Below, one piece after another: positions 2,128 through 20,136 of a DNA stretch of 20,138 nt. A program made the position numbers and the translations under genes. Each line of letters starts with the position of its first letter. Position 1 is the stretch's first letter. The stretch covers positions 1-20,138 of IMG/VR virus record IMGVR_UViG_3300042567_000345. One strand, written 5' to 3'. Source of the stretch: a virus. The notes under the pieces are model-generated. The model ran no database searches and was not told the origin of the DNA. It worked only from the letters and a program-made list of their open reading frames with translations.

Positions 2128-3192
2128 CTACACCTCCTCTAGCGTCATAGAGCAATCAAAATAGTATACATCATCTACAAGATCTCTTCTTATTAAATTT
2201 TCAGAAAAGGTTGATACAAAAACCATAACATTCTCTTCTGTATAGGGAGTAACTCCGTTCTCATCTTGATTAATAATTGTTAATGTATGAACATCTGGGT
2301 CCATAGCTACTGTCTTAAGGTAATTTCTTGACTCTCTATAGTCCACTGTCTTGCTACTATAGTTTGGAATAAAGCTCCATTTAATATTAAATGTTCTCTT
2401 GCCAGAAGAATTTGCTGCATTATTCTTATAGTATCTAGACGAATCACCAGCCCAATTTATATTTTCAACGAATAATGGTGTTACAGAGTAATCAAATGTT
2501 CTTGTTTGATTAGTCAATGGTTTTCCATCAAGCATTAATAGAGCCCTGATTAGCGAACTATCTGCAGTTATGTTCGCTCCAAACCTAATTGCCTCTGCAC
2601 GAACATCCAGATTGTTAAGTATATTAATTCTTATTGTTGCTAAGAATATCTTGCCAGCGGTAGTGAGATTTACCTGACCAGATAGGTTTGCAACAGCAAA
2701 AGCAATTCTTGTTCCATTTGAAACCATTGATGAAAGAATTGCTATTTGAGATGCGCTATATGATGTTTTAACCATAGATGCAGACACTGATGAGTCGGAG
2801 CTCAAGACGCAAGATGAGATTAAAATCTTTGTTCCGCTTGCTACAGAGTTAGAATCAGCGGAGAGTGAAGCACTTGCATAAGCAATCTTTGTAATATTTG
2901 TTTCAACAAGAACTTCTGCTGAAATTACAACATCACCATCCTGTCTTTCTGTTGCAATAACAACAGTTGCGCCATCAACAGCAAGATTTGCTGCTGCATA
3001 TGCAATCTTGTATGCATTTGATGTGAGCTGAGAATTTGATGCAATCGTAATATTTGTAAATCTGAACTGATAAGAAGATACTGTTAGTGTTACACTACTG
3101 TTGATATCAATAGTGACATCCGCAGCATCCGCTTGGTAGAAATCTATACCACGATTAAGTGGTTCACTAAATGAATAAAAACTATCTGACAT
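2128..3192 (-). CDS. distal-tail-like protein with 20-residue repeat array
   Basis: 354 residues in two parts. Residues ~31-210 are a low-complexity S/A/V/N-rich array with a period of 20 residues. Residues ~222-354 are clearly related to the 140-residue protein encoded just upstream: R-x-x-RNYL (286-292 here, 77-83 there) and a Y/F-SE-x-L-hydrophobic-RRD motif (329-337 here, 115-123 there), followed by the same short beta-strand ending. The pair looks like a tandem duplication in which this copy gained the repeat array. Its slot directly after the tape measure and before the tail-tip gene fits a distal-tail (Dit-like) or tail-tube-to-tip adaptor, but I see no named family motif. It starts 3 nt after the upstream stop with a weak purine-rich ribosome site, so translational coupling is likely. 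Its own TAG abuts the ATG of the tail-tip gene. Confidence 0.85.
   Translation of the reverse strand: MSDSFYSFSEPLNRGIDFYQADAADVTIDINSSVTLTVSSYQFRFTNITIASNSQLTSNAYKIAYAAANLAVDGATVVIATERQDGDVVISAEVLVETNITKIAYASASLSADSNSVASGTKILISSCVLSSDSSVSASMVKTSYSASQIAILSSMVSNGTRIAFAVANLSGQVNLTTAGKIFLATIRINILNNLDVRAEAIRFGANITADSSLIRALLMLDGKPLTNQTRTFDYSVTPLFVENINWAGDSSRYYKNNAANSSGKRTFNIKWSFIPNYSSKTVDYRESRNYLKTVAMDPDVHTLTIINQDENGVTPYTEENVMVFVSTFSENLIRRDLVDDVYYFDCSMTLEEV
2563..3102 (-). repeat. 20-residue protein repeat array (about nine units)
   Basis: Inside the preceding CDS, residues ~31-210. Hydrophobic residues recur every 20 positions (L70, I90, L110, L130, I150, L170), and units follow a loose pattern S-D-S-x-V-x-x-x-x-x-K-I-x-Y-A-x-A-x-L-S. 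Clear unit ends are NLA, VIS, SLS, VLS, QIA and NLS. The DNA copies have diverged, so this is an old protein-level repeat rather than a recent DNA expansion. The pattern suggests a beta-solenoid or stacked beta structure; that is inference. Confidence 0.7.
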
Positions 3193-3195
3193 TTT

Positions 3196-3618
3196 CTATT
3201 TCTCTTTAAGAGAAATCTCAACATTGTAGTAGGCACATTGGTTGGGGATATCTCTTCTCACTAGTGTTTCGCTGTATGATTCAACATAGACAACAGTATT
3301 ATAAGATGGTTCTGCTGGATCTAAGGTGATTGATAAACTTGCAGATGAAGATGTTTTGGCAACTGATAGCAGATAGTTTCTTGCCTTACGACCATCAATT
3401 GTTCTTTCTGGATGGTCTGGGAGATACTGAAAAGAAAGGGTGTATACATTCTTAGCGTTCTTAATAAACCTTTTTTTATTCCCGTTTAATAATTCAACAT
3501 TTGACGCAGATGTTGCCATTGAGCTTGAGAATAGGCGACCATGCTCGGTAATTTCTTCCCCATTAATAACTACCAAATGTGTAATACCAGATTGTTGATT
3601 TTGTATTGTAGCTACCAT
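3196..3618 (-). CDS. distal-tail-like protein (paralogue of the next gene)
   Basis: 140 residues, beginning at an ATG that directly abuts the tape measure stop (TAA then ATG), so it is probably translated by reinitiation. The upstream sequence GGGCGG is only a weak ribosome site. The C-terminal ~80 residues contain RKARNYL (77-83) and YSETLVRRD (115-123), shared with the C-terminal domain of the following gene. The N-terminal part (GITHLVVINGEEITEHGR) is short and beta-like. By position, directly after the tape measure, it is expected to sit at the distal end of the tail tube. I do not recognise a named family, so the distal-tail role rests on synteny. Length is short for a Dit, which usually exceeds 200 residues; it may be a minimal tube-to-tip adaptor. 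Confidence 0.82.
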   Translation of the reverse strand: MVATIQNQQSGITHLVVINGEEITEHGRLFSSSMATSASNVELLNGNKKRFIKNAKNVYTLSFQYLPDHPERTIDGRKARNYLLSVAKTSSSASLSITLDPAEPSYNTVVYVESYSETLVRRDIPNQCAYYNVEISLKEK

Positions 3619-6600
3619 TTAGAAACCGCCCTGTATTCCATTATAACTTGTAAATGTTCTTGATTCTAAACCAGCTGCCTTTTGTTGTCTTGGGAGTACA
3701 TTAACATTGTAATCCTTCATCATTCCCTTAAACCATTCTTCTTCCCCGATAAAGGTGTCAACATTAATATTGACGGTTGATACACTTGTTGATCCACCAC
3801 CACCTGCGTATGCTGGTGCTCCAGAAGGTGCTGTAAATCTTGATTGATTAATTCTTTGCATTGTTCCTAGACCCATATTTCTTACAGCATTTGCATTAAC
3901 AACATACTCACCACCATGAAGGATTGCAGGAACTGGCATTGAAGGTGAACCAGGAACATAGCCACCAACTTTATATCCAGGAAGTTGCCCTATTAGAGTG
4001 TCTGTTGGCTTTCCACCATAAAAATTCAATCTTGGGTCAACACTTCTCATAACCTCTTGCAAGAATTCCAAAGATTTTTTATGCAACAGTAGTTTGTACT
4101 GCTCATTATTTGAATCTCTTTTAATCGCCATTGATCTCTCAACAGAATCTCTAATTTGCTGAAGAGCGTTGCTGTCTAATTCGTCTGATAGAGCTTGTGA
4201 ATAATTTGATGAAATTGCATTATATGCTCCAGACAACGAACGAGCAGGTAATGATTCAGATGAGCTCAATAATGAATTAAGAACTAATCTTAGCTCTTGC
4301 ATTTGATCTGGAGGCAGATCAACAGTATCCATTGGTTTTTGCCATCTAGCTATGACATCTGGAAATTGAGAGACCATAGCAGTACCTTGCCATCCTTCTG
4401 GATCTGGTATCTCGTTCTTCATTCTAACAATATAACCACCTGTTGGTTCTTTAAAAATGTGACGCATTAAAGTTCTAAAATCACCATTTTGATCACCTAA
4501 TAAAACATTAGTATTTGAAAGAGGGAAATTTCCTTCTTTTATACCAGAAGATGGATCATAGCCAAATAACATACTCATATTATTTAAGATTGGATTACCA
4601 CTAGTATTATTTCCAAGATAAGCAAACATTTGCTCAAAATCAAATCTTTGAATAAGACCAGGGCTATCATATGTTACAAGCTCTTTAAACTTAGTCATAT
4701 CTCCTTTATTCTTGGCTTCAATCAATTGAAGCAAGAAATCATAGGCTCTTGCAACATACAGCCGACCTGCGCTAAAGCTATAAGCAGCACCTTTGAGCAA
4801 TGGATATCCAGAAACTGGACCGAACGAAGTCATATGCTTGAGCGCACTTGATGCTAAATCAGTTCCAATGTTTTCATCAACGCTTGCTGGTGGTTTTATT
4901 TGACTTAGACCAGGAATGGCTCCTTTATGAATCCCAATTTCAGATGGTGTCAAATTGCCGACTACTTGATCATATAGATCTGTTTTTTCTATTTTTGTCT
5001 TAACATCAAGTGGGAATTTAAAGTTTTCAAAATCCCAAATATCAGTCATATCAATAACATCTCCAGTATTTGCTGTTGATCTTCCTGTTGGATTAGGTAG
5101 CCCAATCATCTCCATAATTGATTGGATTATTCCAGGATTATCGTTTGCCATTCTAAACGGAAGAGAGCTAGAACCTGAGGTTGTGGATGCAATTTCATTA
5201 AACTGAGTCTCAAGGAGGGAAGCGCCAGTTTTCTTTATGTCATCAATCTGGTTAAATGTAGGGAGTTTAAAATAGTTTCCTGTGCGTATTCCTTTTTGAC
5301 TTTCCATTCTAAACAACATCAAAGCTTGGAAAATTTTATTTGTTTGTTGATCTTGAATTAATTTTTTCCATGCATCAATTTCAAAATTATTAATTAATTC
5401 TTTTTCTGCTAGGAAATCAAATGGTATATCCTTTATGTCATTTATTCCACCAAGAGCATCGGCGTACTGAACTGACGCTACTCTACCGTAAGATCCCCCA
5501 GCGTATGAAACTGATTTTGCCCATTCATCAGTAGCCGTAAAAGGAGATAGATTTAAAGGTTGCATCTGAGGTGTGCCCGTCTGAACAGATACTGGATTAA
5601 ACATTTTTATAGGGCTGGCTAGTGGTTTTGACATATCTGGTATTACATAATCCATAGTCTTCATACCTAGCTCTTTACCAGCAACTGATAGCCCCTTTTC
5701 TGGATCATAGAAAGTGCTAGAGGTTGGTTTCCATAGCTGCCCGATGATATCTCCATACTCACTTGGCATGAATTCTTTTAAGATGTCATTTACACCACCA
5801 AGATTTGTACTCTTTGTGTATTCAAGAAGCGTTTTTGTATTAAGTTCAAATCCAGGATATTTACTTGCTAAGTCTGGGACAACCAGAGAAGCTTGTCTGC
5901 GCATTCTTTCTGCCAAGAAAGTATTGAAATCTTCAATTAAGAAACCAGCCAGCATACCATATGCTTCACCTGTCCCAGATGTTGAATTGTATTTTGCTTC
6001 TTCTCCAATCATATCAAGCACAGTCGCAACCTTATACAATTCACCATTTGGTGAAATTGTTTCTGGGTATATTGATCTTAGGGATGCAAATGCTAGATTT
6101 CTGCGTGAATATGGAGTTGTTAATGTATTTAATATATTTGGGTCTTGATCAAGCTGTCCAGTCACCATTAGCAATAAAGCTTTTTTAAGTTCTCTTGAAG
6201 CATCAGTGCCGCCAAACAAAGCAGCCTGCATCATGTTCAACTCAGGATCTGTTGAACCTGGCTGGAATGCGCTAGTCAATCCAGGGATTCCTGTCTTTTT
6301 CTTAGTGAGAGCGTCTAATACAAACTCTGGAGTATAGTACTTAGTCTCTTGATTTCTTGTAATTGTTTTTCTAAACTCATCCATGATCGGTGATTCTGGA
6401 GTGTACATTCCTGGATTCATAGCTATTTGAGTTGCAAACCCAGTGCTGGTTTTATCAGTTACACCAGAACCTTTTCCTGTTTTTACAGAGAACATTGGAT
6501 ATTGTTTTTTAAATGTTGGATCAAACAAACTTTTTTTGCTAAATATTGCTGCGACTGAACTTGCAATAGCATCTTCAAAATCATTATTAGAAATAACACT

Positions 6601-9600
6601 TTCAGGATATCTCAATCTGAGCATTGCCTTGGTGTACTTGCCAATATATCCAAGCTGTGATTCATACAAACTTGCTTTTCTCAGAGAGAGAATATTATCA
6701 ATACCCTCACCGCTTGGGAAAGCTAGGTCAACTCCAGCGTTAACAAAAAGATCATGAAATTCATTTGAAGATAACATTATTTCATTTGCAAATTCATCAA
6801 GATCAAGTCTTTGTCTAACATTAAATATCTTAGCCATCATCTCTGATTCAACATTTGGTTTTCTAAAATTAATCTTCTCTAATAGATCTGGTATTGTAAG
6901 TTTTGCCTTCTTGGAGAAAGCTGGATTTAGCGGATCTGCAAGAGGTCTTCCTGGAAGGATTGGGTTCCCATATTTATCAAATGTTGATTTGTAGTACTTT
7001 TCTTCACTCCCAAACATGTCATAGACAGGTAACTTAGGAAGACCTGCGGTTTCTCTGTTAGCAAAAACTTCTGAAGCGGTATAATATCCTCTCTGTGTTC
7101 TTGTAAGATATTTTTGATAAAAGCTGTCATATGCGGAAGCATATTTATCTTGAACTAATGATGTCGCACTCTTGAATATCCCTGGTTTTTTAACTACTGC
7201 ACTAGAAGCAGCAGATGCACCCATGCCTGGAACTTCATCAAGTGGAATCCAACTGAACGGATCTGATGGATCTTGAGTCATTTCAGTTAATCTAATTGAG
7301 GGAGTAGGAACTGTGCCTGCTGAGCGATTGCCAAGCAATTGTTCTAGTATATATTGTCTTCTTTGAATCAATGATGTCGCATAGTTTAATGCAGTATTGT
7401 TGTGTGGAATAACTGAATGAGCAATCTCTGATATTCTTTCTGGTGTTATTAGTTTCAATTTCTGCGCTGAAGCAGCCATATCCTCTGGAGACATTGAGCC
7501 GAAAACTTTGGATGCATTAAGATATGATCCATGATTGAGAGGATCTGTTGTCATGCTCTTAAGCTCACCGACAATGTTGGTAAACTGTGTATGAGTATCT
7601 GGATTTGACATCTTAGGTTTTCCAGTTCCAGTGAACTTCAGTGAACCACCAGCGTCAATTCTTACTGGAACCCCAGACTCTGAATTAAGAATATTAGGGG
7701 TATCCCAACCAATAACATCGTAGTTACCTAACCATGCATCAACTGCAAAATCTTTTTGGATCAATTTAATATAATCAGGCGATGATAACTGATCAGCAAA
7801 TGAGTTTAGATTGGTTGCTTTTGGAATGATTTCTGAAATGAGTGCTGGACCATTATCAGTCATAATCGTTTTCAAATTAGTTGTTGCAACACCTAGCTCT
7901 CTATAAAGAGCATTTGCAAGCAATTCGTTTTCAATAAGTTCTTGAGTCGTTGCGTATTGACTTGTTGGCTGTTTCACATAATACTGAAGTTTGCTGGATG
8001 GGTTTTCGTAGAGTCCTCCTGGGTTAAATCCTTGCTTTTCACCAATCTTAACCAGGCTTGAGAAATCCAATTCAGGTTCTACTGAGGAGCGAACCTGGGC
8101 ATTAGAAGCAGCAATAAGAGTATCAATAGAACTACTAGGACTACCAGCCATAGTGGTATCAATGAAGCTACCAGAACCAATTGACCCAAATTTAGGACTA
8201 AAGCCGCCTTGAGGCATTGTCATTCTTCCATTCAAAACATCAGCAATCAATGTAGATGGTGCTTTGCCAAATGTTTGTTTTATTGCCCCTGCTGGGTCAT
8301 ATAGATTGTTAAAACCGATTAGTTCTGGAGCTATTGGTGTCTTAGCCCCTCCAGTCATTTTTGCATAAGAAGACTGTATTCTTCCTAACAGGTTTTTATT
8401 AGATAGAACAGTTGTTAATCTATGAGCTCCAGCCTTACTTGCAGATGAACTTAGTGCTCCAGAAACCGCAGCAGCACCTCCTTCACCAAGAGTTGCTGTT
8501 AAAATAGATGCCCCTATTTTTGAAGTTGCTGCACGAGATATACCTGTTTTAACCGCACTGTTTATAAAACTTCCACCACCTAATGTTCCAATGCCGATTG
8601 AGTCCATAATTGCTTTATCACCCGCTAGAGCAAAAGCTGTTTTTTTCCAACCTGGTATTTTTTCTCCAGACATTCTTTCATAAGTATTTAGCTCATTCAT
8701 TGCTGTTTGATATGGTTTACCAACAGTTGTTAGCTGACCATATTTACGAGGAACAAGAGGTATAGAAGCACCAGTTCCATAAAATAAATCATTTTGCCTT
8801 CTTGCGATATTATTAAGAGGATTTTGACTCTTAGAAGGTATAGCTGTTTCAATAAGCCCAGCAGCTGCGTTATATAAACTTACACCACCTACAACACCAA
8901 GTTGTTTAACAGAGTCTGCCACAGAATAAGCAAACTTACCAGTGCCTATTGCAAAATCACTTGCTTTAAAAATTGCTTTCTCAACAAGATTTAGACCTTT
9001 TTCTTTTTTCCAATTAAACGGTTCATCTGCAACTTTTTTAATTTGCTGCTCTACCCTATCTGCAGACCCTCTTGTGTTTGAAGCTGTACCTTTCTTTCCA
9101 CCTGGAACTTGACCACCCTTAATGAATTTTGGAATAAGGTTATTATTCATCTTATTCAAAGCACCTACACCGATTCTTGAAACCGCCTTCGCATTAAGAA
9201 TGTATTCTCCACCATGAAGAAGTGTTGGTACACCTTCTTGTGTTGGCGCTGGGATGAAGCCCTCTGGATACCCTTGATTTTGATTTTGCGCTCTTGATGG
9301 AATTATTCCACCCTTCTTGAAGCCCTTGTAATTTCCAATAAATTCTTGATATGTAAGCGCTCTTAAATTTCTGGCGGCTCTAAGTTCATTATTTCTTGCA
9401 AAAGCATCTGCCCTACCCGTTCCAGCATATGTACCTGTAGGATTAAGAGGAGTGCTGCTACCTGGAGTTCCACCACCTGGTCCACCCGCTGCTGCATCTG
9501 CAGCGCCTGCTGCTGCATCTTTTGCTGCATCTGCGGCTGCTTTTAGTTCAAGGTATTTATTAATTGCTGGATCAAGACTCTTTCTTAGCTTCTCCATCAG

Positions 9601-12600
9601 TGCTGGGTTTAGATCCACCATGTTCTGGAAGCTTCTAAGGATGCTTAGGTTTCCATCAATGATTGCTTGATTGAAAACCTTTGTTGGCTCTGCTTCATCC
9701 AGTGCCTTCTTAAAGTTTGTAATGAAATCGTTCTTAACCTCATCTAAGAACTTGGTCTTCATATCCGTAAAGTTCTGAGCGAGACCAGATGTTATTACAC
9801 CGAACGAATCAATTACTAACTGCTTTCCTTCACCGAACTGTACTCCCATTCCAGCGAGCATTCCGATAGTAATACCAATTACAGTGTTTTCACTCTTATC
9901 AGATCCAAGACCAAATTTTTCTTTTGCTACTAATACAAGTTCGTCAAGATTTGTTGCAAATGGTCCAATAACCTTGTTTGGCATCTTGTCTGCAATTGTG
10001 GTTGCAAAACTTTCAAACATCGTACCAAATGTTGTATTCATATTGGTAGCGTTTGTTTCTGTTAATGTTTGAAGTTCTTGTAGTTGCGCCGTGTACTGCT
10101 CAACAGTAACTGGTGCAATCTTTGTAATTAGAGCAGCAGACTCTTGGAACTTAGCAATTGATTCCTCAAAGAATAATGAAGCCGCATCTTTTGCTTCGTT
10201 AATAGCTTCCTTGAGAGCATCAAGGTTTTCTTTTGCGAGATCCTTTGACCTTTCTTGCTCAATTGTTAAAAGGTCACTACTAAATCCTTTTTCATCAGCG
10301 CTCTGCTGAAGCTGTAGCATTCTTGCGTCATCAACACGACCTTCATAAACAGCCAATGCGTAGTTTCTACGGAACTGCTCATTACTAAGAGCTTGGTTGT
10401 CAATAATCTTTCTTCTATTGTTTTCGTATTCTTTCTTCTTGGTAAGTGATTCTTCTGCCTTTTCAAGCTTACCAAGTGTTTTGATTTGGACATCAAATAC
10501 TTTTAGAGCAGATGTTTTTTGCTTTTCAAGAGCCTTAACGGATGCATCTACAAACTTAGTTAATGCATCTGCCATCTCTCCAGCAACATAATCTTGAAGT
10601 TTCTGAATGGCATCAACAATGCCCTCCTCAATGGCTTTTGCAATTTTTCCAGTAGCGTCAGACTCTTCAAAGCCATCACCAAAGGAGTTACCCATGATTT
10701 CGCCAGCTTCTTCACCAGTTTCTTCTGCTGCGTCTTTAATCTTTGTATCATTACTGATTTTACCCTCGGCTGAGCTGATACCCTTAGATACACCCTTATC
10801 TAGCAGTCCAGTTGCTGCGTTAGCTACTGCATCAATGGCACCACTAGCAGCATTTTTACCCGCATCAACCAATCCATAAAGACCGTCAATAACGAAATTG
10901 ATACTGTCACCAATCCATCCAAATATTCCACCAACACCTGGAATTCTTTCAAGGAAACTAAACACTTTAGCAACAGCTTTTGGAATTAGTGTAAAGTATC
11001 CGATTATCAACTTAATTCCACCAGCGGTGATCCACACCATTCCCTTTAGCAAAGCGGCAATTAACTTAATAACAATCTTTACTGCACCAGAGGTAGCGGC
11101 AACAAGGTAATCAAAAGCTTTACCCCAGTTGCCTTGGAATATTGAAACAACAAACATTACGATATCAATAATCATGTACAGATATGGCTGAATAAAGTTT
11201 TCAACCAGCATCTTAAACCAAGAAGCTACCTTTTGTAATACTTTTCCAACTACTTCAAATGCTTTTGAAAGACCGCCAACAGCATCTCCACCTTTCTTAG
11301 AACCACCACCGATTATTGAAAACAAATCCACAAACGGTTGGATCAGTAACAGAATGGCTTCTTTAAATATTGCCCATGCATTCTTAACTCTTAATATCGC
11401 ACCAGAAGCTTTATCTTTAAAAGCACTAAAGTTTTTAACAATGATATAAACAGCAACTCCGATACCAAGCATGATTGCACCGATACCAGTTGATATGAGA
11501 GCAACCTTCATTAGCTTAAGAGCAATTGTTCCAAGCTTTGTAGCCTTCATGAAGCCAGTCATTGCGGTTGTCATTGTTCTGATTACACCAGTACCACCAC
11601 CACCAGCCATCTGTTGAATCTGCATTGCTTGAACTGCGGCTTTAGCGCCTTGTACCGACTTTGTATAAGCGGCTACTGGACCAGCGTTAAATGCAGCTGA
11701 CGCTAGACCTCTAATATTTCCTGCACCAGTTGCAATCCCTCCACGGGTAGGTAGCATTCCTCTTGCAAAACCTCTTCCTGTTACGCCAGTAGCTGAAGTA
11801 AATGAATCAGCCAAACCAGGAAGCGCCGCTGTTCTTCTTGCTATTGCACCACCAATACCACCACGAGCAATTCTTAATGCTCTATCTTCAGTAATATCTA
11901 CAAGACCTCTCTTTGTAGCAAGCCTTGCTCCACCAGCACCAGTTCTTGATATTCCAGCATCTGTGAGCATGGACTCTCTTAACACTGATGCTTCAGAAAT
12001 TTTTCCAAGAATGTTACCACCAACAAAACCACCCCTTGGACCAATTACACGACCACGAGCATTAAGTCGCATATTATTAGCAGAAAGCATACTTGCTTCA
12101 TTTCTAAGATACTGATCTACACCCAGTCTTCCTGTTGCTGCATGAGAAAGCCTCGCTGCTCTGTTTGCATTGATGGCACTTGTTCTAGCAGCGCCTGTAA
12201 GTCCAGTTAATGGTGTTGGGGTTGGAGCAATATTGCCAGGGAGTGTGATGTTGCGACCAACTCTTGTTGGCATACCAATCATTGATGATGCTGTACCGCC
12301 AGCAGGTGCAAAACTTGGAAGCATAGAAAGTGGTTGTTTCTTGCCAAGGAAACTGTTATACATATCTGTCATTGCCGTGGTTGCTTTCTTTGCTCCACCA
12401 GCAATTCCTACAAGACCACCTTCAAAATTCTTTAACTTCGGTAAGAAGAATGTAGCTGCTCTTCCAAGCACACCGATAGATGATTGCATTGTTCCTAATG
12501 CAAGAATTACTGGTGCCATTACTGCTAAGAAACCGAGGAAGCCAAGAATTAATTTGGATATTCTTTCTCTTGTTGTGTCACTTAGTGCTTGCCATTTTAG

Positions 12601-14556
12601 ATAAAGATTGTTGATCGTATCAGACAGTTTCTTTAATGATGGAGTTACATTTCTAAGTACATCTGCAGCAAAGTTTTTAAATGCAATCTTAATTCTCTGC
12701 GTAGCAACCGAAAGAGATTTCAATGACTGCTCTAATTCCATGTTTGCTACATCAGCAGCACCAGATGCACCTGCGAGCTCAACAAGCATTGCACGACCAG
12801 CCTGTGTTTTTACCTGGCTGATTAAGTCAATGTCTTCATTCAACTTCTTCTCTTTAATCAGCTTAGCTACAGCATCTCGTGCCTCCATAGCACCTTTCTT
12901 TTCTGCTGCTGTAATACCACCGCCTGCACCTTTGCCTTTAAACCCATCAACCAATGCTCCAACTTCAGCAGTAGCAATTCTTGCGATAACACCAATATCA
13001 CTAAACTGACTTATTGTTTCTGGAAGTGCTGTACCGTTGAGTTTATTAAAGGCTCTGATGGATCCTTCAGCAACACCTGCCATTAATCTTTCTGGTGATT
13101 GATTAGCATTAACATTTTTCAAAGCAGCATCAAACTGATTCAATTGTTCAATAGCAACATACATTCTTGGACCCTGACGCTTTTCAAATATTTCAGACAT
13201 CAGTTTCAGTCCAGCTTCAGTGTTTTTTCCACCTTCAACAACTTTTCCAAAAATATCAACAATAGCCTGAAGTCCTGTTAGACCAGTCTTTGTTGATTCG
13301 CTAAATGCGTTACCAGATTTGCCAGTAACACCATATTGCTTAGAAAGTTTTGCTAGTAGTTCAACATTTTGCTTAGTAGGTACAATTGCTCTCTGAAGAG
13401 AAACTTTAATTGAGTTTGCAGAAGCACCAATATCAAAACCAGCAGCCTTCATTGGTGCAAGCAAAGCTGCTGCTTCTGTCATTGACAGACCGAAGCTCAA
13501 AGCCATACCACCAAGTTCAGGCAATGAATCAGCAAGGTCTTTCAACGAAAGTGCGGTGACATTTTCAATTGTGTTGAACATATTGAGCTGAACTGTTGCT
13601 GACGCTATAGCTTTAGATTCACGATCAGCGGCTGATGTTACTTCATCAAATGCGCCAGCAACCTCGTATGCTCTCGTTGCATTAAAGAACAAAGCCGAGG
13701 ATAGATCTTGTGCACCAGATGCATCCATTCCTCCCAATTTTTCTGCAGCTAATGCTAATTCAGTAAGTGCTACAATATTTTCATTTGCAGTAACACCAAG
13801 TTCTGCAAAATCAACAGCCAGGCTAACTACTAAATCTTTTGCGACACCAAATCTTGCGCTTTGCTCGGTCAAAGCAGTATTTAGCTCTCTAAAGGAGTCG
13901 GTCATTTGCTTGACTCTTTTCTCCTTGTCTGGACCAAGATAATCTTTAAGCTTTGAGTTTGCTTGATCCGTTGTCATAGCAACGCCTTCAAGAACCTTTG
14001 TCAATCTTACAAATTGCTCATCAACCTTCAACAAGCTCTGGAAGCCCATTCTTGCAAATAGAAGGATTGGAGCTGTGAGGTTAATCATCAAGCTTCTACC
14101 AACGAACTGTGCGTCTTTACCAATTCGTTGTAGCTTTAGTGATATTGAACTAAGGTCTGAACCAAATGCTCTAATTCGCAAACCTCTTAGGGTTGAATTA
14201 AATTGCTTTAATTCATTCCTGCTTTGAATTAGTTCTCTACCAAACGCTGTGGTTGTACCACCAGCTGATTGAATAGCCATAGCGTATGACTTGATGTTTG
14301 ATTGAACACGCTTAGTCTCTGCGCCAAGAGCCTTCTGATTTGCAATCATCTGCTTGGCAGTCTTCGCATGATCATTCATGCTTCTGTTTGTCATTCCAAG
14401 AGCTTTGTTCACAGCTCGGCTGTGAGCATCAAGCTTGCTCATTGGTACCGTAATACCCCTTAGATTGAGGGCTAAGGCTCTAGTAGCGGCGCTAAGGTTA
14501 GTAATATCCTTAACGCCATTAGTATGTACATTAATTATTAGATCAACATCAGACAT
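3619..14556 (-). CDS. tail tape measure protein, giant, with embedded kinase-like domain
   Basis: 3645 residues; it sets tail length and is threaded through the tail tube. Residues ~215-430 match the TP901-1/PhageMin_Tail type core (FAELGVTANENIVALTEL at 250-267, LPELGGMALSFGLSMTEAAALL near 345-366). Hydrophobic segments lie at ~670-695, ~1013-1040 and a cluster at ~1110-1190. A charged coiled coil runs ~1333-1475 and an Ala/Gly/Pro linker ~1673-1710. The LHGGEY motif that usually marks a tape measure C-terminus occurs at 1780-1785, and again at 3546-3551. Between the two copies are ~1766 residues, including a kinase-like domain at ~2168-2412 and long unrecognised helical stretches; I saw no HExxH or obvious lysozyme motif. 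The start is the first ATG after an in-frame TAA; there is no good ribosome site before it. It follows the frameshifting chaperone gene pair, as expected. Confidence 0.96.
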   Translation of the reverse strand: MSDVDLIINVHTNGVKDITNLSAATRALALNLRGITVPMSKLDAHSRAVNKALGMTNRSMNDHAKTAKQMIANQKALGAETKRVQSNIKSYAMAIQSAGGTTTAFGRELIQSRNELKQFNSTLRGLRIRAFGSDLSSISLKLQRIGKDAQFVGRSLMINLTAPILLFARMGFQSLLKVDEQFVRLTKVLEGVAMTTDQANSKLKDYLGPDKEKRVKQMTDSFRELNTALTEQSARFGVAKDLVVSLAVDFAELGVTANENIVALTELALAAEKLGGMDASGAQDLSSALFFNATRAYEVAGAFDEVTSAADRESKAIASATVQLNMFNTIENVTALSLKDLADSLPELGGMALSFGLSMTEAAALLAPMKAAGFDIGASANSIKVSLQRAIVPTKQNVELLAKLSKQYGVTGKSGNAFSESTKTGLTGLQAIVDIFGKVVEGGKNTEAGLKLMSEIFEKRQGPRMYVAIEQLNQFDAALKNVNANQSPERLMAGVAEGSIRAFNKLNGTALPETISQFSDIGVIARIATAEVGALVDGFKGKGAGGGITAAEKKGAMEARDAVAKLIKEKKLNEDIDLISQVKTQAGRAMLVELAGASGAADVANMELEQSLKSLSVATQRIKIAFKNFAADVLRNVTPSLKKLSDTINNLYLKWQALSDTTRERISKLILGFLGFLAVMAPVILALGTMQSSIGVLGRAATFFLPKLKNFEGGLVGIAGGAKKATTAMTDMYNSFLGKKQPLSMLPSFAPAGGTASSMIGMPTRVGRNITLPGNIAPTPTPLTGLTGAARTSAINANRAARLSHAATGRLGVDQYLRNEASMLSANNMRLNARGRVIGPRGGFVGGNILGKISEASVLRESMLTDAGISRTGAGGARLATKRGLVDITEDRALRIARGGIGGAIARRTAALPGLADSFTSATGVTGRGFARGMLPTRGGIATGAGNIRGLASAAFNAGPVAAYTKSVQGAKAAVQAMQIQQMAGGGGTGVIRTMTTAMTGFMKATKLGTIALKLMKVALISTGIGAIMLGIGVAVYIIVKNFSAFKDKASGAILRVKNAWAIFKEAILLLIQPFVDLFSIIGGGSKKGGDAVGGLSKAFEVVGKVLQKVASWFKMLVENFIQPYLYMIIDIVMFVVSIFQGNWGKAFDYLVAATSGAVKIVIKLIAALLKGMVWITAGGIKLIIGYFTLIPKAVAKVFSFLERIPGVGGIFGWIGDSINFVIDGLYGLVDAGKNAASGAIDAVANAATGLLDKGVSKGISSAEGKISNDTKIKDAAEETGEEAGEIMGNSFGDGFEESDATGKIAKAIEEGIVDAIQKLQDYVAGEMADALTKFVDASVKALEKQKTSALKVFDVQIKTLGKLEKAEESLTKKKEYENNRRKIIDNQALSNEQFRRNYALAVYEGRVDDARMLQLQQSADEKGFSSDLLTIEQERSKDLAKENLDALKEAINEAKDAASLFFEESIAKFQESAALITKIAPVTVEQYTAQLQELQTLTETNATNMNTTFGTMFESFATTIADKMPNKVIGPFATNLDELVLVAKEKFGLGSDKSENTVIGITIGMLAGMGVQFGEGKQLVIDSFGVITSGLAQNFTDMKTKFLDEVKNDFITNFKKALDEAEPTKVFNQAIIDGNLSILRSFQNMVDLNPALMEKLRKSLDPAINKYLELKAAADAAKDAAAGAADAAAGGPGGGTPGSSTPLNPTGTYAGTGRADAFARNNELRAARNLRALTYQEFIGNYKGFKKGGIIPSRAQNQNQGYPEGFIPAPTQEGVPTLLHGGEYILNAKAVSRIGVGALNKMNNNLIPKFIKGGQVPGGKKGTASNTRGSADRVEQQIKKVADEPFNWKKEKGLNLVEKAIFKASDFAIGTGKFAYSVADSVKQLGVVGGVSLYNAAAGLIETAIPSKSQNPLNNIARRQNDLFYGTGASIPLVPRKYGQLTTVGKPYQTAMNELNTYERMSGEKIPGWKKTAFALAGDKAIMDSIGIGTLGGGSFINSAVKTGISRAATSKIGASILTATLGEGGAAAVSGALSSSASKAGAHRLTTVLSNKNLLGRIQSSYAKMTGGAKTPIAPELIGFNNLYDPAGAIKQTFGKAPSTLIADVLNGRMTMPQGGFSPKFGSIGSGSFIDTTMAGSPSSSIDTLIAASNAQVRSSVEPELDFSSLVKIGEKQGFNPGGLYENPSSKLQYYVKQPTSQYATTQELIENELLANALYRELGVATTNLKTIMTDNGPALISEIIPKATNLNSFADQLSSPDYIKLIQKDFAVDAWLGNYDVIGWDTPNILNSESGVPVRIDAGGSLKFTGTGKPKMSNPDTHTQFTNIVGELKSMTTDPLNHGSYLNASKVFGSMSPEDMAASAQKLKLITPERISEIAHSVIPHNNTALNYATSLIQRRQYILEQLLGNRSAGTVPTPSIRLTEMTQDPSDPFSWIPLDEVPGMGASAASSAVVKKPGIFKSATSLVQDKYASAYDSFYQKYLTRTQRGYYTASEVFANRETAGLPKLPVYDMFGSEEKYYKSTFDKYGNPILPGRPLADPLNPAFSKKAKLTIPDLLEKINFRKPNVESEMMAKIFNVRQRLDLDEFANEIMLSSNEFHDLFVNAGVDLAFPSGEGIDNILSLRKASLYESQLGYIGKYTKAMLRLRYPESVISNNDFEDAIASSVAAIFSKKSLFDPTFKKQYPMFSVKTGKGSGVTDKTSTGFATQIAMNPGMYTPESPIMDEFRKTITRNQETKYYTPEFVLDALTKKKTGIPGLTSAFQPGSTDPELNMMQAALFGGTDASRELKKALLLMVTGQLDQDPNILNTLTTPYSRRNLAFASLRSIYPETISPNGELYKVATVLDMIGEEAKYNSTSGTGEAYGMLAGFLIEDFNTFLAERMRRQASLVVPDLASKYPGFELNTKTLLEYTKSTNLGGVNDILKEFMPSEYGDIIGQLWKPTSSTFYDPEKGLSVAGKELGMKTMDYVIPDMSKPLASPIKMFNPVSVQTGTPQMQPLNLSPFTATDEWAKSVSYAGGSYGRVASVQYADALGGINDIKDIPFDFLAEKELINNFEIDAWKKLIQDQQTNKIFQALMLFRMESQKGIRTGNYFKLPTFNQIDDIKKTGASLLETQFNEIASTTSGSSSLPFRMANDNPGIIQSIMEMIGLPNPTGRSTANTGDVIDMTDIWDFENFKFPLDVKTKIEKTDLYDQVVGNLTPSEIGIHKGAIPGLSQIKPPASVDENIGTDLASSALKHMTSFGPVSGYPLLKGAAYSFSAGRLYVARAYDFLLQLIEAKNKGDMTKFKELVTYDSPGLIQRFDFEQMFAYLGNNTSGNPILNNMSMLFGYDPSSGIKEGNFPLSNTNVLLGDQNGDFRTLMRHIFKEPTGGYIVRMKNEIPDPEGWQGTAMVSQFPDVIARWQKPMDTVDLPPDQMQELRLVLNSLLSSSESLPARSLSGAYNAISSNYSQALSDELDSNALQQIRDSVERSMAIKRDSNNEQYKLLLHKKSLEFLQEVMRSVDPRLNFYGGKPTDTLIGQLPGYKVGGYVPGSPSMPVPAILHGGEYVVNANAVRNMGLGTMQRINQSRFTAPSGAPAYAGGGGSTSVSTVNINVDTFIGEEEWFKGMMKDYNVNVLPRQQKAAGLESRTFTSYNGIQGGF
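3901..3960 (-). repeat. second copy of the tape measure LHGGEY motif
   Basis: Encodes tape measure residues 3533-3552: PVPAILHGGEYVVNANAV begins here and is followed by GLGTMQRINQSRF. It matches the motif at residues 1773-1792 in spacing and in the downstream G-x-G-x-hydrophobic-x-x-hydrophobic-N element, 1766 residues further on and ~100 residues from the C-terminus, which is where this motif normally lies. Confidence 0.75.
7321..8055 (-). other. kinase-like domain inside the tape measure protein
   Basis: Tape measure residues ~2168-2412. In order I see a Gly-rich segment GFNPGGLYENP (2176-2186) and YYVK with K2195, the expected nucleotide-binding Lys. E2211 (ENELLANALY) follows on the next helix. 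Then come DAWLGNYDVIGWDTPNIL (2273-2290), with D2280 and N2288 in the catalytic-loop position, and RIDAGG (2299-2304), with D2301 as the metal-binding Asp. A C-terminal lobe holds VFGSM-S-x-E-D and ends near QRRQYILEQLLG. I recall the same motif series from uncharacterised kinase-fold proteins of actinobacteria and phages (HipA/PI-kinase-like fold); no search was possible. All expected catalytic residues are present, so activity is possible. Substrate is unknown. Confidence 0.68.
9181..9240 (-). repeat. first copy of the tape measure C-terminal LHGGEY motif
   Basis: Encodes tape measure residues 1773-1792: GVP-TLLHGGEY-ILNAKAV, followed by GVGALNKMN and an FIKGGQVPGG segment. This G-hydrophobic-P-x-x-L-H-G-G-E-Y/F-hydrophobic-hydrophobic-N/P-A/K motif is a common signature near the end of phage tape measures. 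Here it lies in the middle of the protein, and a second copy sits near the true C-terminus. Confidence 0.75.
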
Positions 14557-14604: not shown

Positions 14605-14934
14605 TTAATCTGCTTGATATCCCAATGGAATGCCGAAGTTCATTACTTCAAATGGTCTCATTGGCTCATCTGGCACTCTATCTTCTGGCGAGTACCAGTC
14701 ATCTTCAAAGTCAACATCAGCGCCTTGAGCCAAGGCGAGCGCTTTGATATTCTTACTGAATTCATTAGTACAAGCTCGGTACAATAGAAACATCTCATGA
14801 AGGATTAGAGATTCTTCTAATTCCTCTAGATTTTTCCATGCACCGACCTGTACAAATATTTCTGATTCATATTTGAGAAGGGGAATCTCATTCCATGACA
14901 AGGGTTCACCACCCTCGCCATCCCCGTTTATTGG
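14605..14934 (-). CDS. tail assembly chaperone extension (gpT-like), made by -1 frameshift
   Basis: This frame encodes the C-terminal part of a gpG-gpT type fusion. It opens in frame -1 at the slippery heptamer in the end of the upstream chaperone gene and runs without a stop to TAA at 14605-14607. After the slip, residues P-I-N-G-D-G-E-G-G-E-P-L join the upstream 101 residues to SWNEIPLLKYES and onward, giving a product of about 210 residues. The body is acidic and helical (NLEELEESLILHEMFLLYRACTNEF spans the core), as is usual for gpT-like chaperone domains, which recruit major tail protein to the tape measure. The first possible independent start in frame is a TTG at 14901 with no convincing ribosome site, so frameshifting is the better explanation. 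The tape measure starts 48 nt downstream. Confidence 0.85.
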   Translation of the reverse strand, partial: PINGDGEGGEPLSWNEIPLLKYESEIFVQVGAWKNLEELEESLILHEMFLLYRACTNEFSKNIKALALAQGADVDFEDDWYSPEDRVPDEPMRPFEVMNFGIPLGYQAD

Positions 14935-14940
14935 TTTGGG
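14895..14940 (-). promoter_or_regulatory. -1 programmed frameshift signal: CCCAAAC heptamer plus hairpin
   Basis: On the minus strand the heptamer C CCA AAC occupies 14940-14934 and lies in the zero frame exactly as X XXY YYZ (GAC CCA AAC CAA TAA). The zero-frame TAA follows one codon later. After a 12-nt spacer, an 11-bp stem can form: the arm at 14921-14911 (ATGGCGAGGGT) pairs with 14905-14895 (ACCCTTGTCAT) around the loop GGTGA, with nine Watson-Crick and two G-U pairs. The spacer is longer than the usual 5-9 nt. Heptamer phase, hairpin, the open -1 frame and the gene slot agree with the lambda G/GT arrangement. Confidence 0.8.
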
Positions 14941-19033: not shown

Positions 19034-19204
19034 CCACTTATTATGAGGGCAATTTAAACCCTCAATAACAATAGATGTAACAAAACAGTTACATTCATGT
19101 TCGGTGCAATTTTTATTTTCTCCAAGATATTCACACTGCTCGCATATGCGAATACATTCTTTTTTCTCTTCTGTGAGATCTTGTAAGTTTTCCCAAATTA
19201 TCAT
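19031..19204 (-). CDS. 57-residue Cys-rich, probably zinc-binding protein
   Basis: 57 residues with seven Cys: C-x3-C-x2-C near the middle, then C-x4-C-x-C, then a final CP-x-x-KW. This spacing and the CP-x-x-KW ending resemble small zinc-knuckle-like proteins I recall from many marine and freshwater phage genomes, whose function is unknown. I chose the ATG at 19204 because it gives a 4-nt ATGA overlap with the stop of the upstream fibre gene. A longer frame starting at 19360 would run 160 nt inside that gene and has no such support. No signal peptide is visible. The upstream fibre protein and this gene are therefore translationally coupled, but a functional link is only inferred from that. 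Confidence 0.72.
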   Translation of the reverse strand: MIIWENLQDLTEEKKECIRICEQCEYLGENKNCTEHECNCFVTSIVIEGLNCPHNKW

Positions 19205-20136
19205 GCCCAGTATACCCAATGCTCCCATGTTCCAGACAGGTTTGTGTAAGTTGCTGTCCCAGCTTGTCCTGTACCCCATATTAGACCATTCGGGAATGAA
19301 CCGCAAGTTGATCCGTTCCAACCAGCACCTACAGCCCCATCCGAGTTTCCCCAGTTGCATGACTGCTGCACATTGTTAAAGAATCCATGACCACCTGCAT
19401 ATCCAAGAAATATCCTATACCCAGTTCTTGTTCCAGATGTTGTATAAATGTTTGTAAAGTTTGTTGTGTTGTATCTCTCGTATCCAGCAAAATAACCAGT
19501 ATGTCGTATATCCAAAGTATCTCTTTGAACAAGCAACCCCTGATATGGAATATCCAAACCCAATCTATTTACTGTTGCGGTTCCGTTGTATGGACTTGAA
19601 AAAACTCTTACCCAAGGTTTTGATTCAATATAATTTGGTGAATAATACAATTCAACTGCCGATGTCATTGCGCCATCTCTAAACCAATAATTTCCTGCTG
19701 GATAACCAAGGTTTTGCAAAAACATTGGTGATGTTGCTGGATTAGATTGCGTTCCGTATGCTGGTGGTTTCTGAAGAGGATACCTTACGACAACAATTCC
19801 AGATCCACCTTCACCACCTTTATTGGTATTGTTATAGTGGGAACCTCCACCACCTCCACCACCAGTATTTGAGCCAGCATCACCGCCTCTGGTATTAGTT
19901 TGTGCATTGTTACTACCACCGTATCCGCTATATCCATTATTATAACCAGCACCGCCAGAGTTAGAACCTACTGCCCCACCGCCTCCACCACCAATGCCTC
20001 CGTTACCACCGCTGCCAGCAGAATAAGCAGCTCCACCACCTCCACCGCCCCAATATAAATCAACACCAAGGATTGAAGAAAATTTTCCAGGACCACCATT
20101 TGGAAAATTTTCTTCAATCCTTGGTGTTGATTTATA
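19201..20136 (-). CDS. glycine-rich fibre / head-decoration protein, 5' end missing
   Basis: Partial: open from the window edge, stop TGA at 19201-19203, about 311 codons visible. The first ~12 visible residues lie in the suspect inverted repeat and are probably not real. From FSSILGVDLYW on there is a long Gly-rich tract (GGGGGG runs, NTGGGGGGG) ending in GGEGGSGIVVVRYP, a signature of glycine-rich fibre domains in many phages. The next ~190 residues form a globular C-terminal domain rich in Trp, Tyr and Gly (GNYWFRDGAMTSAVELYYSP near the start, CNWGNSDGAVGAGWNGSTCG, and a final WEHWVYWA), with faint resemblance to fibrinogen-like lectin domains. It is probably a glycan-binding tip. It lies upstream of the connector genes, not after the tail genes, so it may decorate the head. 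Confidence 0.78.
   Translation of the reverse strand, partial: YKSTPRIEENFPNGGPGKFSSILGVDLYWGGGGGGAAYSAGSGGNGGIGGGGGGAVGSNSGGAGYNNGYSGYGGSNNAQTNTRGGDAGSNTGGGGGGGSHYNNTNKGGEGGSGIVVVRYPLQKPPAYGTQSNPATSPMFLQNLGYPAGNYWFRDGAMTSAVELYYSPNYIESKPWVRVFSSPYNGTATVNRLGLDIPYQGLLVQRDTLDIRHTGYFAGYERYNTTNFTNIYTTSGTRTGYRIFLGYAGGHGFFNNVQQSCNWGNSDGAVGAGWNGSTCGSFPNGLIWGTGQAGTATYTNLSGTWEHWVYWA

What the first reader, a model, noticed from the sequence alone, without database searches (positions are those of the whole stretch)
7321..8055. Complete-looking kinase-like domain inside a tape measure protein
Residues ~2168-2412 contain, in order, a Gly-rich loop, K2195 in YYVK, E2211, D2280 and N2288, and D2301 in RIDAGG, followed by a helical lobe with VFGSM. 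This is the motif order of HipA/PI-kinase-like folds and matches motifs I recall from uncharacterised actinobacterial and phage proteins. Tape measures are known to carry peptidases or muramidases for entry; a kinase-like cargo would be a new type. A tape measure is delivered into the cell envelope or cytoplasm at infection, so such a domain could modify a host protein at the very start of infection. Activity and delivery are inference.
Basis: partly seen in the sequence, partly recalled or inferred. Interest (0 to 1): 0.82.

Follow-up and report, generated by a model that had tools for sequence, protein, structure and literature searches.

The report
Swappable kinase cargo in phage ruler
A phage tail-ruler protein carries, in a slot where relatives carry other cargo or nothing, a kinase-like enzyme domain with its active-site residues intact, which suggests that some phages use their tail to inject interchangeable enzymes into the bacterium at the start of infection.

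Summary
Residues 2161-2412 of a 3,645-aa tape measure protein are predicted to form a two-lobe atypical kinase domain (AlphaFold pLDDT 88, pTM 0.87; best solved match CtkA, Z 15.6, then HipT, HipA, LepB, actin-fragmin kinase). K2195, E2211, D2280, N2288 and D2301 are kept in at least 96 of 97 viral and 65 of 66 cellular relatives. The window domain matches no Pfam family. Of 89 viral frames examined with the domain, 80 are not tape measures; one is annotated as particle-associated. Tape measures with 91-97% identical bodies carry unrelated inserts there; more distant ones carry none. The kinase segment has almost no synonymous divergence from one sister contig that is far more diverged around it, so the module seems recently exchanged. 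A second, distant tape-measure lineage also carries the kinase; a sibling with a 99.7% identical body lacks it. Other inserts show transglycosylase matches and metzincin- or ART-like motifs. Most likely the tail delivers an exchangeable kinase effector. Activity, substrate and delivery are untested.

The parts
3619..14556 (-). tape measure protein gene, 3,645 aa
   Evidence: open frame; five PHROG tape-measure families E 6.6e-27 to 7.7e-5; Pfam PhageMin_Tail E 3.8e-7, under cut-off
9217..14556 (-). constant tape-measure body, residues 1-1780
   Evidence: residues 1-1760 have significant alignments in 39 of 39 complete motif-bearing tape measures, covering 708 to 1,760 residues; 96.8% identical in L158, which has other cargo
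9118..9282 (-). first GGEY motif (about residues 1759-1813; GGEY at 1782), left border of the insert
   Evidence: pS 0.089 at 1781-1820 against 0.45-0.66 in the neighbouring steps
3988..9117 (-). variable cargo insert, residues 1814-3523
   Evidence: from about residue 1865 replaced by unrelated sequence in L158 and L160; no cargo in 11 of 28 distinct complete relatives
7321..8076 (-). HipA/PI-kinase-like domain, residues 2161-2412 (finding: 2168-2412)
   Evidence: AlphaFold model, fold matches, five catalytic-type residues nearly invariant
7057..8136 (-). apparently exchanged block, about residues 2141-2500, around the kinase domain
   Evidence: pS 0-0.14 per 40 codons, against 0.49-0.80 at 1821-2100 and 0.16-0.22 just downstream, mostly 0.3-0.6 further on; window versus L014
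7972..7974 (-). K2195, beta-3 lysine (YYVK)
   Evidence: 96 of 97 viral, 65 of 66 cellular; on strand E52-56 of the model
7924..7926 (-). E2211, helix-C glutamate
   Evidence: 96 of 97, 65 of 66; in helix H65-81 of the model
7717..7719 (-). D2280, catalytic-loop aspartate
   Evidence: 96 of 97, 65 of 66 (column biased by the search pattern)
7693..7695 (-). N2288, catalytic-loop asparagine
   Evidence: 97 of 97, 66 of 66
7654..7656 (-). D2301, metal-binding aspartate (RIDAGG)
   Evidence: 96 of 97, 65 of 66 (viral column biased by the search pattern); follows strand E158-160 of the model
3820..3987 (-). second GGEY motif (residues 3524-3579; GGEY at 3548), right border of the insert
3622..3987 (-). 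constant C-terminal cap, residues 3524-3645
   Evidence: significant alignment in 39 of 39 complete relatives, covering 109 to 122 residues; pS 0.03-0.06 from 3541 on against L014
14605..15236 (-). two tail-assembly-chaperone-like genes upstream, with slippery C_CCA_AAC at 14934-14940
   Evidence: chaperone role is inferred from position and the frameshift site

Best explanation
The tape measure of this probably actinobacterial phage is a constant body (about 1,780 aa) plus a constant C-terminal cap (about 120 aa), with an internal slot between two copies of a GGEY(I/V)xNAxAV motif that holds exchangeable cargo. Here the cargo includes a HipA/PI-kinase-like domain with a complete set of ATP- and metal-site residues. 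Shown by computation: the predicted fold, conservation of the residues, the slot, and different cargo in closely related phages; exchange of the kinase module itself is strongly indicated. Inferred: the cargo travels unfolded in the tail tube, leaves with the tape measure at infection, refolds in the host and phosphorylates a host protein to help takeover or blunt defence.
For: Model pLDDT 88, pTM 0.87, with K on the third strand, E in the next helix, D and N in a loop before a short strand and D after the following strand. CtkA Z 15.6 (rmsd 3.9, 227 aligned), HipT 12.0, HipA 11.7, LepB 11.4, actin-fragmin kinase 10.0, PI3K about 9. Profile alignment with nine HipA_2 kinases pairs all five residues (single-pair E 5e-4, but HHalign probability only 32%). 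Conservation 96/96/96/97/96 of 97 and 65/65/65/66/65 of 66. Swap: L158 and L160 share residues 1-1864 (95.6%, 89.9%) and the C-terminal end (from 3524 or 3528; 83.6%, 78.7%) with the window but not the middle, and no kinase domain was found in their records. Second lineage: L081 has the kinase; L237, body 99.7% identical, does not, and identity resumes 12 aa after the kinase. Synonymous divergence near 0 in the kinase block. Relatives in proteins with ART and MuF domains; one relative annotated as particle-associated.
Against: No activity, substrate or delivery data. The window's domain matches no Pfam model. Foldseek's own TM-scores are modest (0.30-0.55, large rmsd). Residue geometry in the model was not measured. 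That a globular enzyme passes the tail tube and reaches the cytoplasm is not shown. The exchange signal for the kinase rests on one metagenomic contig (that of L014), where an assembly chimera cannot be excluded. Only 9 of 89 viral frames with the domain carry the tape-measure motif, from two lineages, and the 80 contigs scanned are the best of 482 by similarity to the query.
Confidence: 0.66

Rival explanations
1. Kinase fold with a different chemistry: the domain transfers AMP, glutamate or another group (as SelO and SidJ do, recalled) rather than phosphate to a protein.
For: Kinase folds of the atypical branch do several chemistries (recalled); the family is too distant from characterised enzymes to assign a reaction by sequence.
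Against: Best fold matches are named kinases (CtkA, HipA, HipT, actin-fragmin kinase, PI3K) and the Lys/Glu/Asp/Asn/Asp set is conserved.
Confidence: 0.12
2. Kinase acting on a small molecule or lipid rather than a protein, for example a phosphoinositide-type or nucleotide substrate.
For: One of 24 full-length proteins from cellular genomes matches PF00454 PI3_PI4_kinase at E 1.4e-5; PI3K and PI4K chains are among the fold matches; a viral library hit is named phosphatidylinositol 3-/4-kinase (rank 9).
Against: HipA/CtkA-type protein kinases match better. Bacteria rarely use phosphoinositides, although actinobacteria make PI (recalled).
Confidence: 0.1
3. The domain works inside the producing cell, modifying tail proteins or the tape measure itself during assembly or maturation, and is not an effector.
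For: The tape measure is made late and sits in the tail; some phage proteins are modified in assembly (recalled).
Against: Closely related tape measures make do with unrelated cargo, more distant ones with none; relatives occur in other large phage proteins, several with ART or MuF domains.
Confidence: 0.08
4. Catalytically dead filler: the insert only lengthens the tape measure.
For: Insert size sets protein length, and tape-measure length sets tail length (established knowledge).
Against: Five catalytic-type residues nearly invariant over 163 domains from phages and cellular genomes; cargo sizes vary from 649 to 1,815 aa among complete relatives.
Confidence: 0.04

Closest known systems
HipA / HipT toxin kinases and CtkA (HipA/PI-kinase-like atypical kinases)
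   Same: Two-lobe fold, Z 15.6 to 10; Lys-Glu-Asp-Asn-Asp set in the same order; Gly-rich loop usually with a Ser, reminiscent of the autophosphorylated P-loop Ser of HipA (PMC10653801, passages).
   Different: No Pfam HipA match for the window domain; 5 of 38 relatives touch HipA_C (best E 0.0017) and 4 of 38 HipA_2 (best 0.058). D to N spacing is 8, against D-x-H-x-x-N in 4 of the 5 HipA_C proteins fetched. No HipA N-terminal subdomain match in the protein. Carried on a tail protein. The window has Phe where 84 of 97 viral relatives have Ser.
HipA_2 (PF20613) kinases
   Same: Closest sequence family found; NIDRSWRNPN and LIDHGAALWF parallel NYDVIGWDTPN and RIDAGGSLKF.
   Different: Weak matches only: 4 of 38 members, best E 0.058; 1 of 9 at 0.0074; 1 of 24 cellular full-length proteins at 2.4e-4.
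Polyvalent proteins and their kinases (Iyer et al. 2017, PMC5512222; passages read)
   Same: Giant multidomain phage proteins predicted to be packaged and injected, including ART domains; the large non-tape-measure relatives fit this class.
   Different: The kinases described there have lost the C-terminal subdomain and keep a phosphotransfer His and Asp; this domain keeps a helical C-lobe and has no conserved His. 'HipA' and 'tape measure' do not occur in the text held.
MuF polymorphic toxins (PMC5576092; passages read)
   Same: Constant virion-association domain with a variable enzymatic part; 3 of 22 viral and 5 of 24 cellular proteins with this kinase also match MuF.
   Different: Carrier here is the tape measure, the variable part is internal, and a constant cap follows it.
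Tape-measure-related effectors of actinobacterial contractile injection systems (Sle1; PMC13277306, abstract and passages read)
   Same: Tape-measure-like carrier with diverse, replaceable functional domains in actinobacteria. That paper also notes earlier suggestions that C-terminal motifs of some actinophage tape measures modulate the host.
   Different: Those are host-encoded effectors of contractile systems; here a phage's own tape measure with an internal insert. 'Kinase' does not occur in that text.
Tape measures with muralytic motifs (mycobacteriophage TM4 and others, recalled)
   Same: Enzymatic domain inside a tape measure; 5 of 25 cargo types here match a transglycosylase model (best E 5.2e-6).
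   Different: Wall-lytic domains aid entry; a kinase needs ATP and so a cytoplasmic site of action (inference).

Membership tests
HipA/PI-kinase-like atypical kinase superfamily | two-lobe kinase fold | tested here: met
   predicted model and fold matches
HipA/PI-kinase-like atypical kinase superfamily | Lys, Glu, catalytic Asp, Asn and metal Asp conserved in order | tested here: met
HipA/PI-kinase-like atypical kinase superfamily | these residues converge on one site in the model | not testable with these tools
HipA/PI-kinase-like atypical kinase superfamily | phosphotransfer activity | not testable with these tools
   needs protein
HipA toxin (HipA_C, PF07804) | match to HipA_C | tested here: not met
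   window domain 0 families; 5 of 38 relatives weakly, best E 0.0017
HipA toxin (HipA_C, PF07804) | HipA N-terminal subdomain or HipS, and HipB partner, alongside | tested here: inconclusive
   no Hip-type Pfam match in the whole protein; nine neighbouring or tail frames scanned against PHROGs only
Polyvalent-protein kinase of Iyer et al. 2017 | loss of the C-terminal subdomain, conserved phosphotransfer His and Asp | tested here: not met
   five C-lobe helices at residues 192-269 of the model; no His among invariant or nearly invariant columns; definition from passages
Tape measure protein | match to tape-measure profiles; place after major tail protein and chaperone pair with -1 frameshift site | tested here: met
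   (under cut-off)
Polymorphic toxin / effector architecture | constant carrier with interchangeable effector region | tested here: met
Polymorphic toxin / effector architecture | cognate immunity gene | not tested
   not looked for; a strictly lytic phage would not need one (inference)
Polyvalent protein | several different effector domains in one packaged polypeptide | tested here: inconclusive
   only the kinase is recognised in the window's cargo; some relatives combine it with ART, MuF or NUDIX; packaging not tested

The most novel reading that the evidence does not exclude
Tape measures of this actinophage group are a polymorphic injection platform: body and cap are constant, the duplicated GGEY motif marks (and by its low synonymous divergence may serve as homology arms for) a cassette slot, and cargos such as a kinase, ART-like and metzincin-like enzymes are swapped between phages and injected ahead of or with the genome, so the siphophage tail works as an effector-secretion device.
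Probability: 0.5. Interest if true: 0.92.

Novelty: new variant of a known kind. Interest (0 to 1): 0.82.

Why it matters
The enzymatic parts of tape measures that I know of act on the cell wall (recalled). A kinase needs ATP, so it would mean that the tail delivers host-modifying enzymes at time zero, before any phage gene is expressed. The swap pairs (nearly the same body and cap, different cargo) make this testable: phages that differ mainly in the insert. Cultured phages that carry the same domain, though in other proteins, exist (Gordonia phages Forza, Sixama, Phendrix, GodonK; Actinomycetia phage DSL-LC01), so knock-outs and phosphoproteomics can be done in laboratory hosts. The domain family, 482 stretches in viral contigs and 65 loci in cellular genomes, has no function assigned that I found.

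Tried and rejected
Sequence-only look-ups: no Pfam family for the window domain, no meaningful PDB sequence hit, no NCBIfam hit of note for the protein. Hanks-type Ser/Thr kinase was rejected: order and spacing fit the HipA/PI-kinase branch and that branch ranks first by VIA-align, although Foldseek's E-value order mixes in many ordinary protein kinases. Three HipA_C proteins, all of one genome, gave no useful profile alignment (E 0.5). The L158 replacement cargo has no Pfam match; a 342-aa part of it has no match in the phage collection and only its own record in viral contigs. An AlphaFold model of the ART-like cargo region of L221/L192 failed (2-row alignment, pLDDT 34). So the ART label for those cargos rests on the R, STS, ExE pattern and one weak Pfam match (E 0.049, 1 of 25); in PDB sequences L221 gave only sub-threshold ART-toxin chains (E 0.35 and above) and L192 nothing. 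The metzincin label rests on HEMGHxFNLDHPH with SIM(D/S)Y and one weak match (E 0.033, 1 of 25); L187 gave no PDB match. In one search short 35-49 aa stretches of tape-measure body also appeared in the kinase-profile table; I dropped them as spurious. Literature searches for a kinase or HipA in tape measures, or for exchangeable tape-measure cargo (open-licence PMC papers only) showed none in the listings; I opened six papers (PMC5512222, PMC7824862, PMC9503650, PMC5576092, PMC13277306, PMC10653801), reading passages, and for PMC13277306 also the abstract. No paper on phage fHe-Yen8-01 is held.

Full report
Observation. The window (20,138 bases, a virus record) holds on the minus strand a tail gene cluster. 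Its largest gene, 3619-14556, encodes 3,645 aa. The N-terminal third matches PHROG tape-measure families (E 6.6e-27 to 7.7e-5) and Pfam PhageMin_Tail (E 3.8e-7, under its cut-off). Upstream lie two small genes joined by a canonical -1 slippery heptamer, C_CCA_AAC, as in tail-assembly chaperone pairs, and a major-tail-protein-like gene.

Fold. An alignment of the window domain with 37 viral relatives (A2) gave a confident model: mean pLDDT 88.2, pTM 0.87, 204 of 276 residues at 90 or more. K2195 lies on the third strand, E2211 in the following helix, D2280 and N2288 in a loop before a short strand, D2301 after the next strand, followed by a helical lobe: the order of a kinase active site. Foldseek gives 247 PDB chains at E of 0.001 or less; the 50 listed are kinases, with modest TM-scores (0.30-0.55). 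VIA-align ranks CtkA first (Z 15.6, rmsd 3.9, 227 aligned), then HipT (12.0, 4.4, 207), Shewanella HipA (11.7, 5.2, 211), LepB (11.4, 3.5, 194), HipA S150A (11.3, 3.8, 200), actin-fragmin kinase (10.0, 4.1, 210), PRPK/Bud32 and PI3K/PI4K (about 8.5 to 10); ordinary protein kinases lie at about 8 to 9. A profile alignment with nine HipA_2 kinases pairs all five residues (E 5e-4 for that single comparison, HHalign probability 32%). HipA and HipT use two conserved aspartates for ATP coordination and Mg binding (PMC10653801, passages read); that D2280 and D2301 correspond to them is my inference from the order of motifs.

Conservation. Relatives: 19 of 50,697 phage records, some of them duplicates of one phage; 482 confirmed stretches in viral contigs, of which the best 80 were kept; 65 loci in genome contigs; 6 plasmid records. 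In one alignment of 163 domains (profile E below 1e-20, not dereplicated), K, E, D, N and D are kept in 96, 96, 96, 97 and 96 of 97 viral/phage domains and 65, 65, 65, 66 and 65 of 66 from cellular genomes. The patterns that found most of these loci contained the D2280 segment or the D2301 segment, so these columns are partly enriched by the search; K, E and N are not, and the eight phage rows found by plain tblastn (in A1) show all five. In the Gly-rich loop, the position that is Phe2177 in the window is Ser in 84 of 97 and 61 of 66.

Where relatives sit. Of 89 viral/phage frames with the domain, 9 carry the tape-measure motif, in two lineages (L010-L014; L079, L081, L082, L084). 77 of the 89 frames exceed 1,000 aa (my count; some frames are cut by contig ends). 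I looked at nine annotated neighbourhoods. In four the gene lies beside portal or other head genes: DSL-LC01, Gordonia phages Forza and Phendrix and a Pseudomonas juntendi plasmid. In Mecenats66 and fHe-Yen8-01 a terminase lies a few genes away. In phiT5282EW, Dolphis and ST4 no head gene is annotated nearby. Pfam finds the ART exoenzyme domain in 5 and MuF in 3 of 22 viral proteins, and ART in 6, MuF in 5 and NUDIX in 4 of 24 from cellular genomes. In Yersinia phage fHe-Yen8-01 the 2,146-aa carrier is annotated 'phage particle associated protein'.

The slot. The motif PAxLHGGEY(I/V)xNAxAV occurs twice in the window's tape measure, GGEY at 1782 and 3548. Two close tape measures, L158 and L160, match residues 1-1864 (95.6% and 89.9%) and the C-terminal end (83.6% from 3524, 78.7% from 3528; L160 is cut by its contig end) but have sequence unrelated to the window's between. 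Their own two cargos share a first part (88% over 294 aa) and then diverge (25.5% over about 940 aa). No kinase domain was found in their records (108,687 and 41,632 bases; possibly fragments). A scan with the motif gave 254 confirmed stretches, 80 kept. With six loci added by me, 86 frames carry the motif (some share a contig); 39 are complete, 28 of them distinct at 95%. All 39 have significant alignments with the window's body (covering 708 to 1,760 of 1,760 residues) and cap (109 to 122 of 122). Of the 28, 11 have no cargo (1,870-2,238 aa; one motif 113-119 aa before the end, or two motifs 46-67 aa apart), 2 are long with a single motif, and 15 carry 649-1,815 aa between two motifs. The kinase is in 3 of 28 (L010, L014, L081). 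Among 16 pairs of 15 proteins with similar bodies (over 60% identity and coverage), 10 share at most 11% of their cargo; the other six share 20 to 98%.

A second case. L081 (3,340 aa) and L237 (3,072 aa), whose bodies are only distantly like the window's, have bodies 99.7% identical to each other and match at 90.5% up to residue 2485. L081 then has a possibly ART-like stretch and the kinase (2942-3201); L237 has other sequence; identity resumes at 3213, 12 aa after the kinase.

Exchange. Window against L014: synonymous divergence (Nei-Gojobori, Jukes-Cantor) is 0.03 in the kinase domain and 0.04 in the cap, against 0.28-0.44 in the body and 0.38-1.1 in most other cargo (0.10-0.25 just beside the kinase). 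In 40-codon steps pS is 0 from 2181 to 2260 and 2301 to 2380, and falls to 0.089 over the first motif. Selection on the protein alone would not do this; recent recombination would. A chimeric contig is the caveat, since this comparison rests on one contig; L158, L160 and L237 come from three others.

What other cargo is. Of 25 cargo clusters, 5 match a transglycosylase model (best E 5.2e-6), 3 DUF6861 (best 6.6e-5), 1 weakly a metallopeptidase (0.033) and 1 weakly an ART (0.049), besides three minor matches. L187 and L198 have a metzincin-type HEMGHxFNLDHPH motif; L221 and L192 an R-STS-ExE ART-type pattern. A fold model for the latter failed. Many clusters have no recognised domain.

Host. 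WhiB genes, typical of actinobacteria and their phages (recalled), are in 5 of 9 related records, including those of L158 and L159/L014; of 14 control genomes only Corynebacterium has one. Distant tape-measure relatives are in Gordonia and Rhodococcus phages (7 records). An actinobacterial host is likely, not shown.

How it most likely works. Tape measures are ejected from the tail tube at infection (stated in PMC13277306). Cargo near the C-terminal end would be close to the tail tip and leave early (recalled orientation). A HipA-like kinase needs ATP, which points to the cytoplasm. I think a host protein is the most likely substrate; which one is unknown.

Verdict. Observation confirmed, interpretation supported, and extended: an exchangeable internal cargo slot in a tape measure, with a domain of a HipA/PI-kinase-like family that Pfam does not hold as one payload.

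Noticed in passing
window 14934-14940: Canonical -1 frameshift heptamer C_CCA_AAC at the end of the upstream chaperone-like gene; reading shifts into the next small gene.
   Followed up: partly
window 7312-8139 and the relatives in A2: 10 of 38 relatives (not the window itself) match PADLOC's candidate defence model PDLC04340 (PDC-M03A, best E 2.6e-5), so bacteria may use a related kinase in defence.
   Followed up: no
window residue 2177 (codon at 8026-8028): The usual loop Ser (84 of 97 viral relatives) is Phe here; if that Ser is an autophosphorylation brake as in HipA, this lineage lacks it.
   Followed up: no
L122 4350-7070: A bacterial MAG protein with two tandem copies of the kinase domain.
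   Followed up: no
L091-L155: The domain occurs in cellular genomes of Endozoicomonas, the Pseudomonas syringae group, Legionella longbeachae, Gastranaerophilales, actinobacteria and others, in open frames of about 250 to 5,200 aa; some look like prophage genes (MuF, minor capsid), most contexts were not examined.
   Followed up: partly
L258 4576-8976: A plasmid of Pseudomonas juntendi carries phage head genes, with a protein annotated as NUDIX that holds the kinase domain beside the minor head protein: perhaps a phage-plasmid.
   Followed up: no
L198, L187, L221, L192, L202, L199: Other tape-measure cargos with metzincin-like, ART-like and unidentified but recurring stretches worth their own study.
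   Followed up: partly
window 19201-20136: Open frame with a very Gly-rich N-terminal part, cut off by the window end, on the same strand as the tail genes.
   Followed up: no
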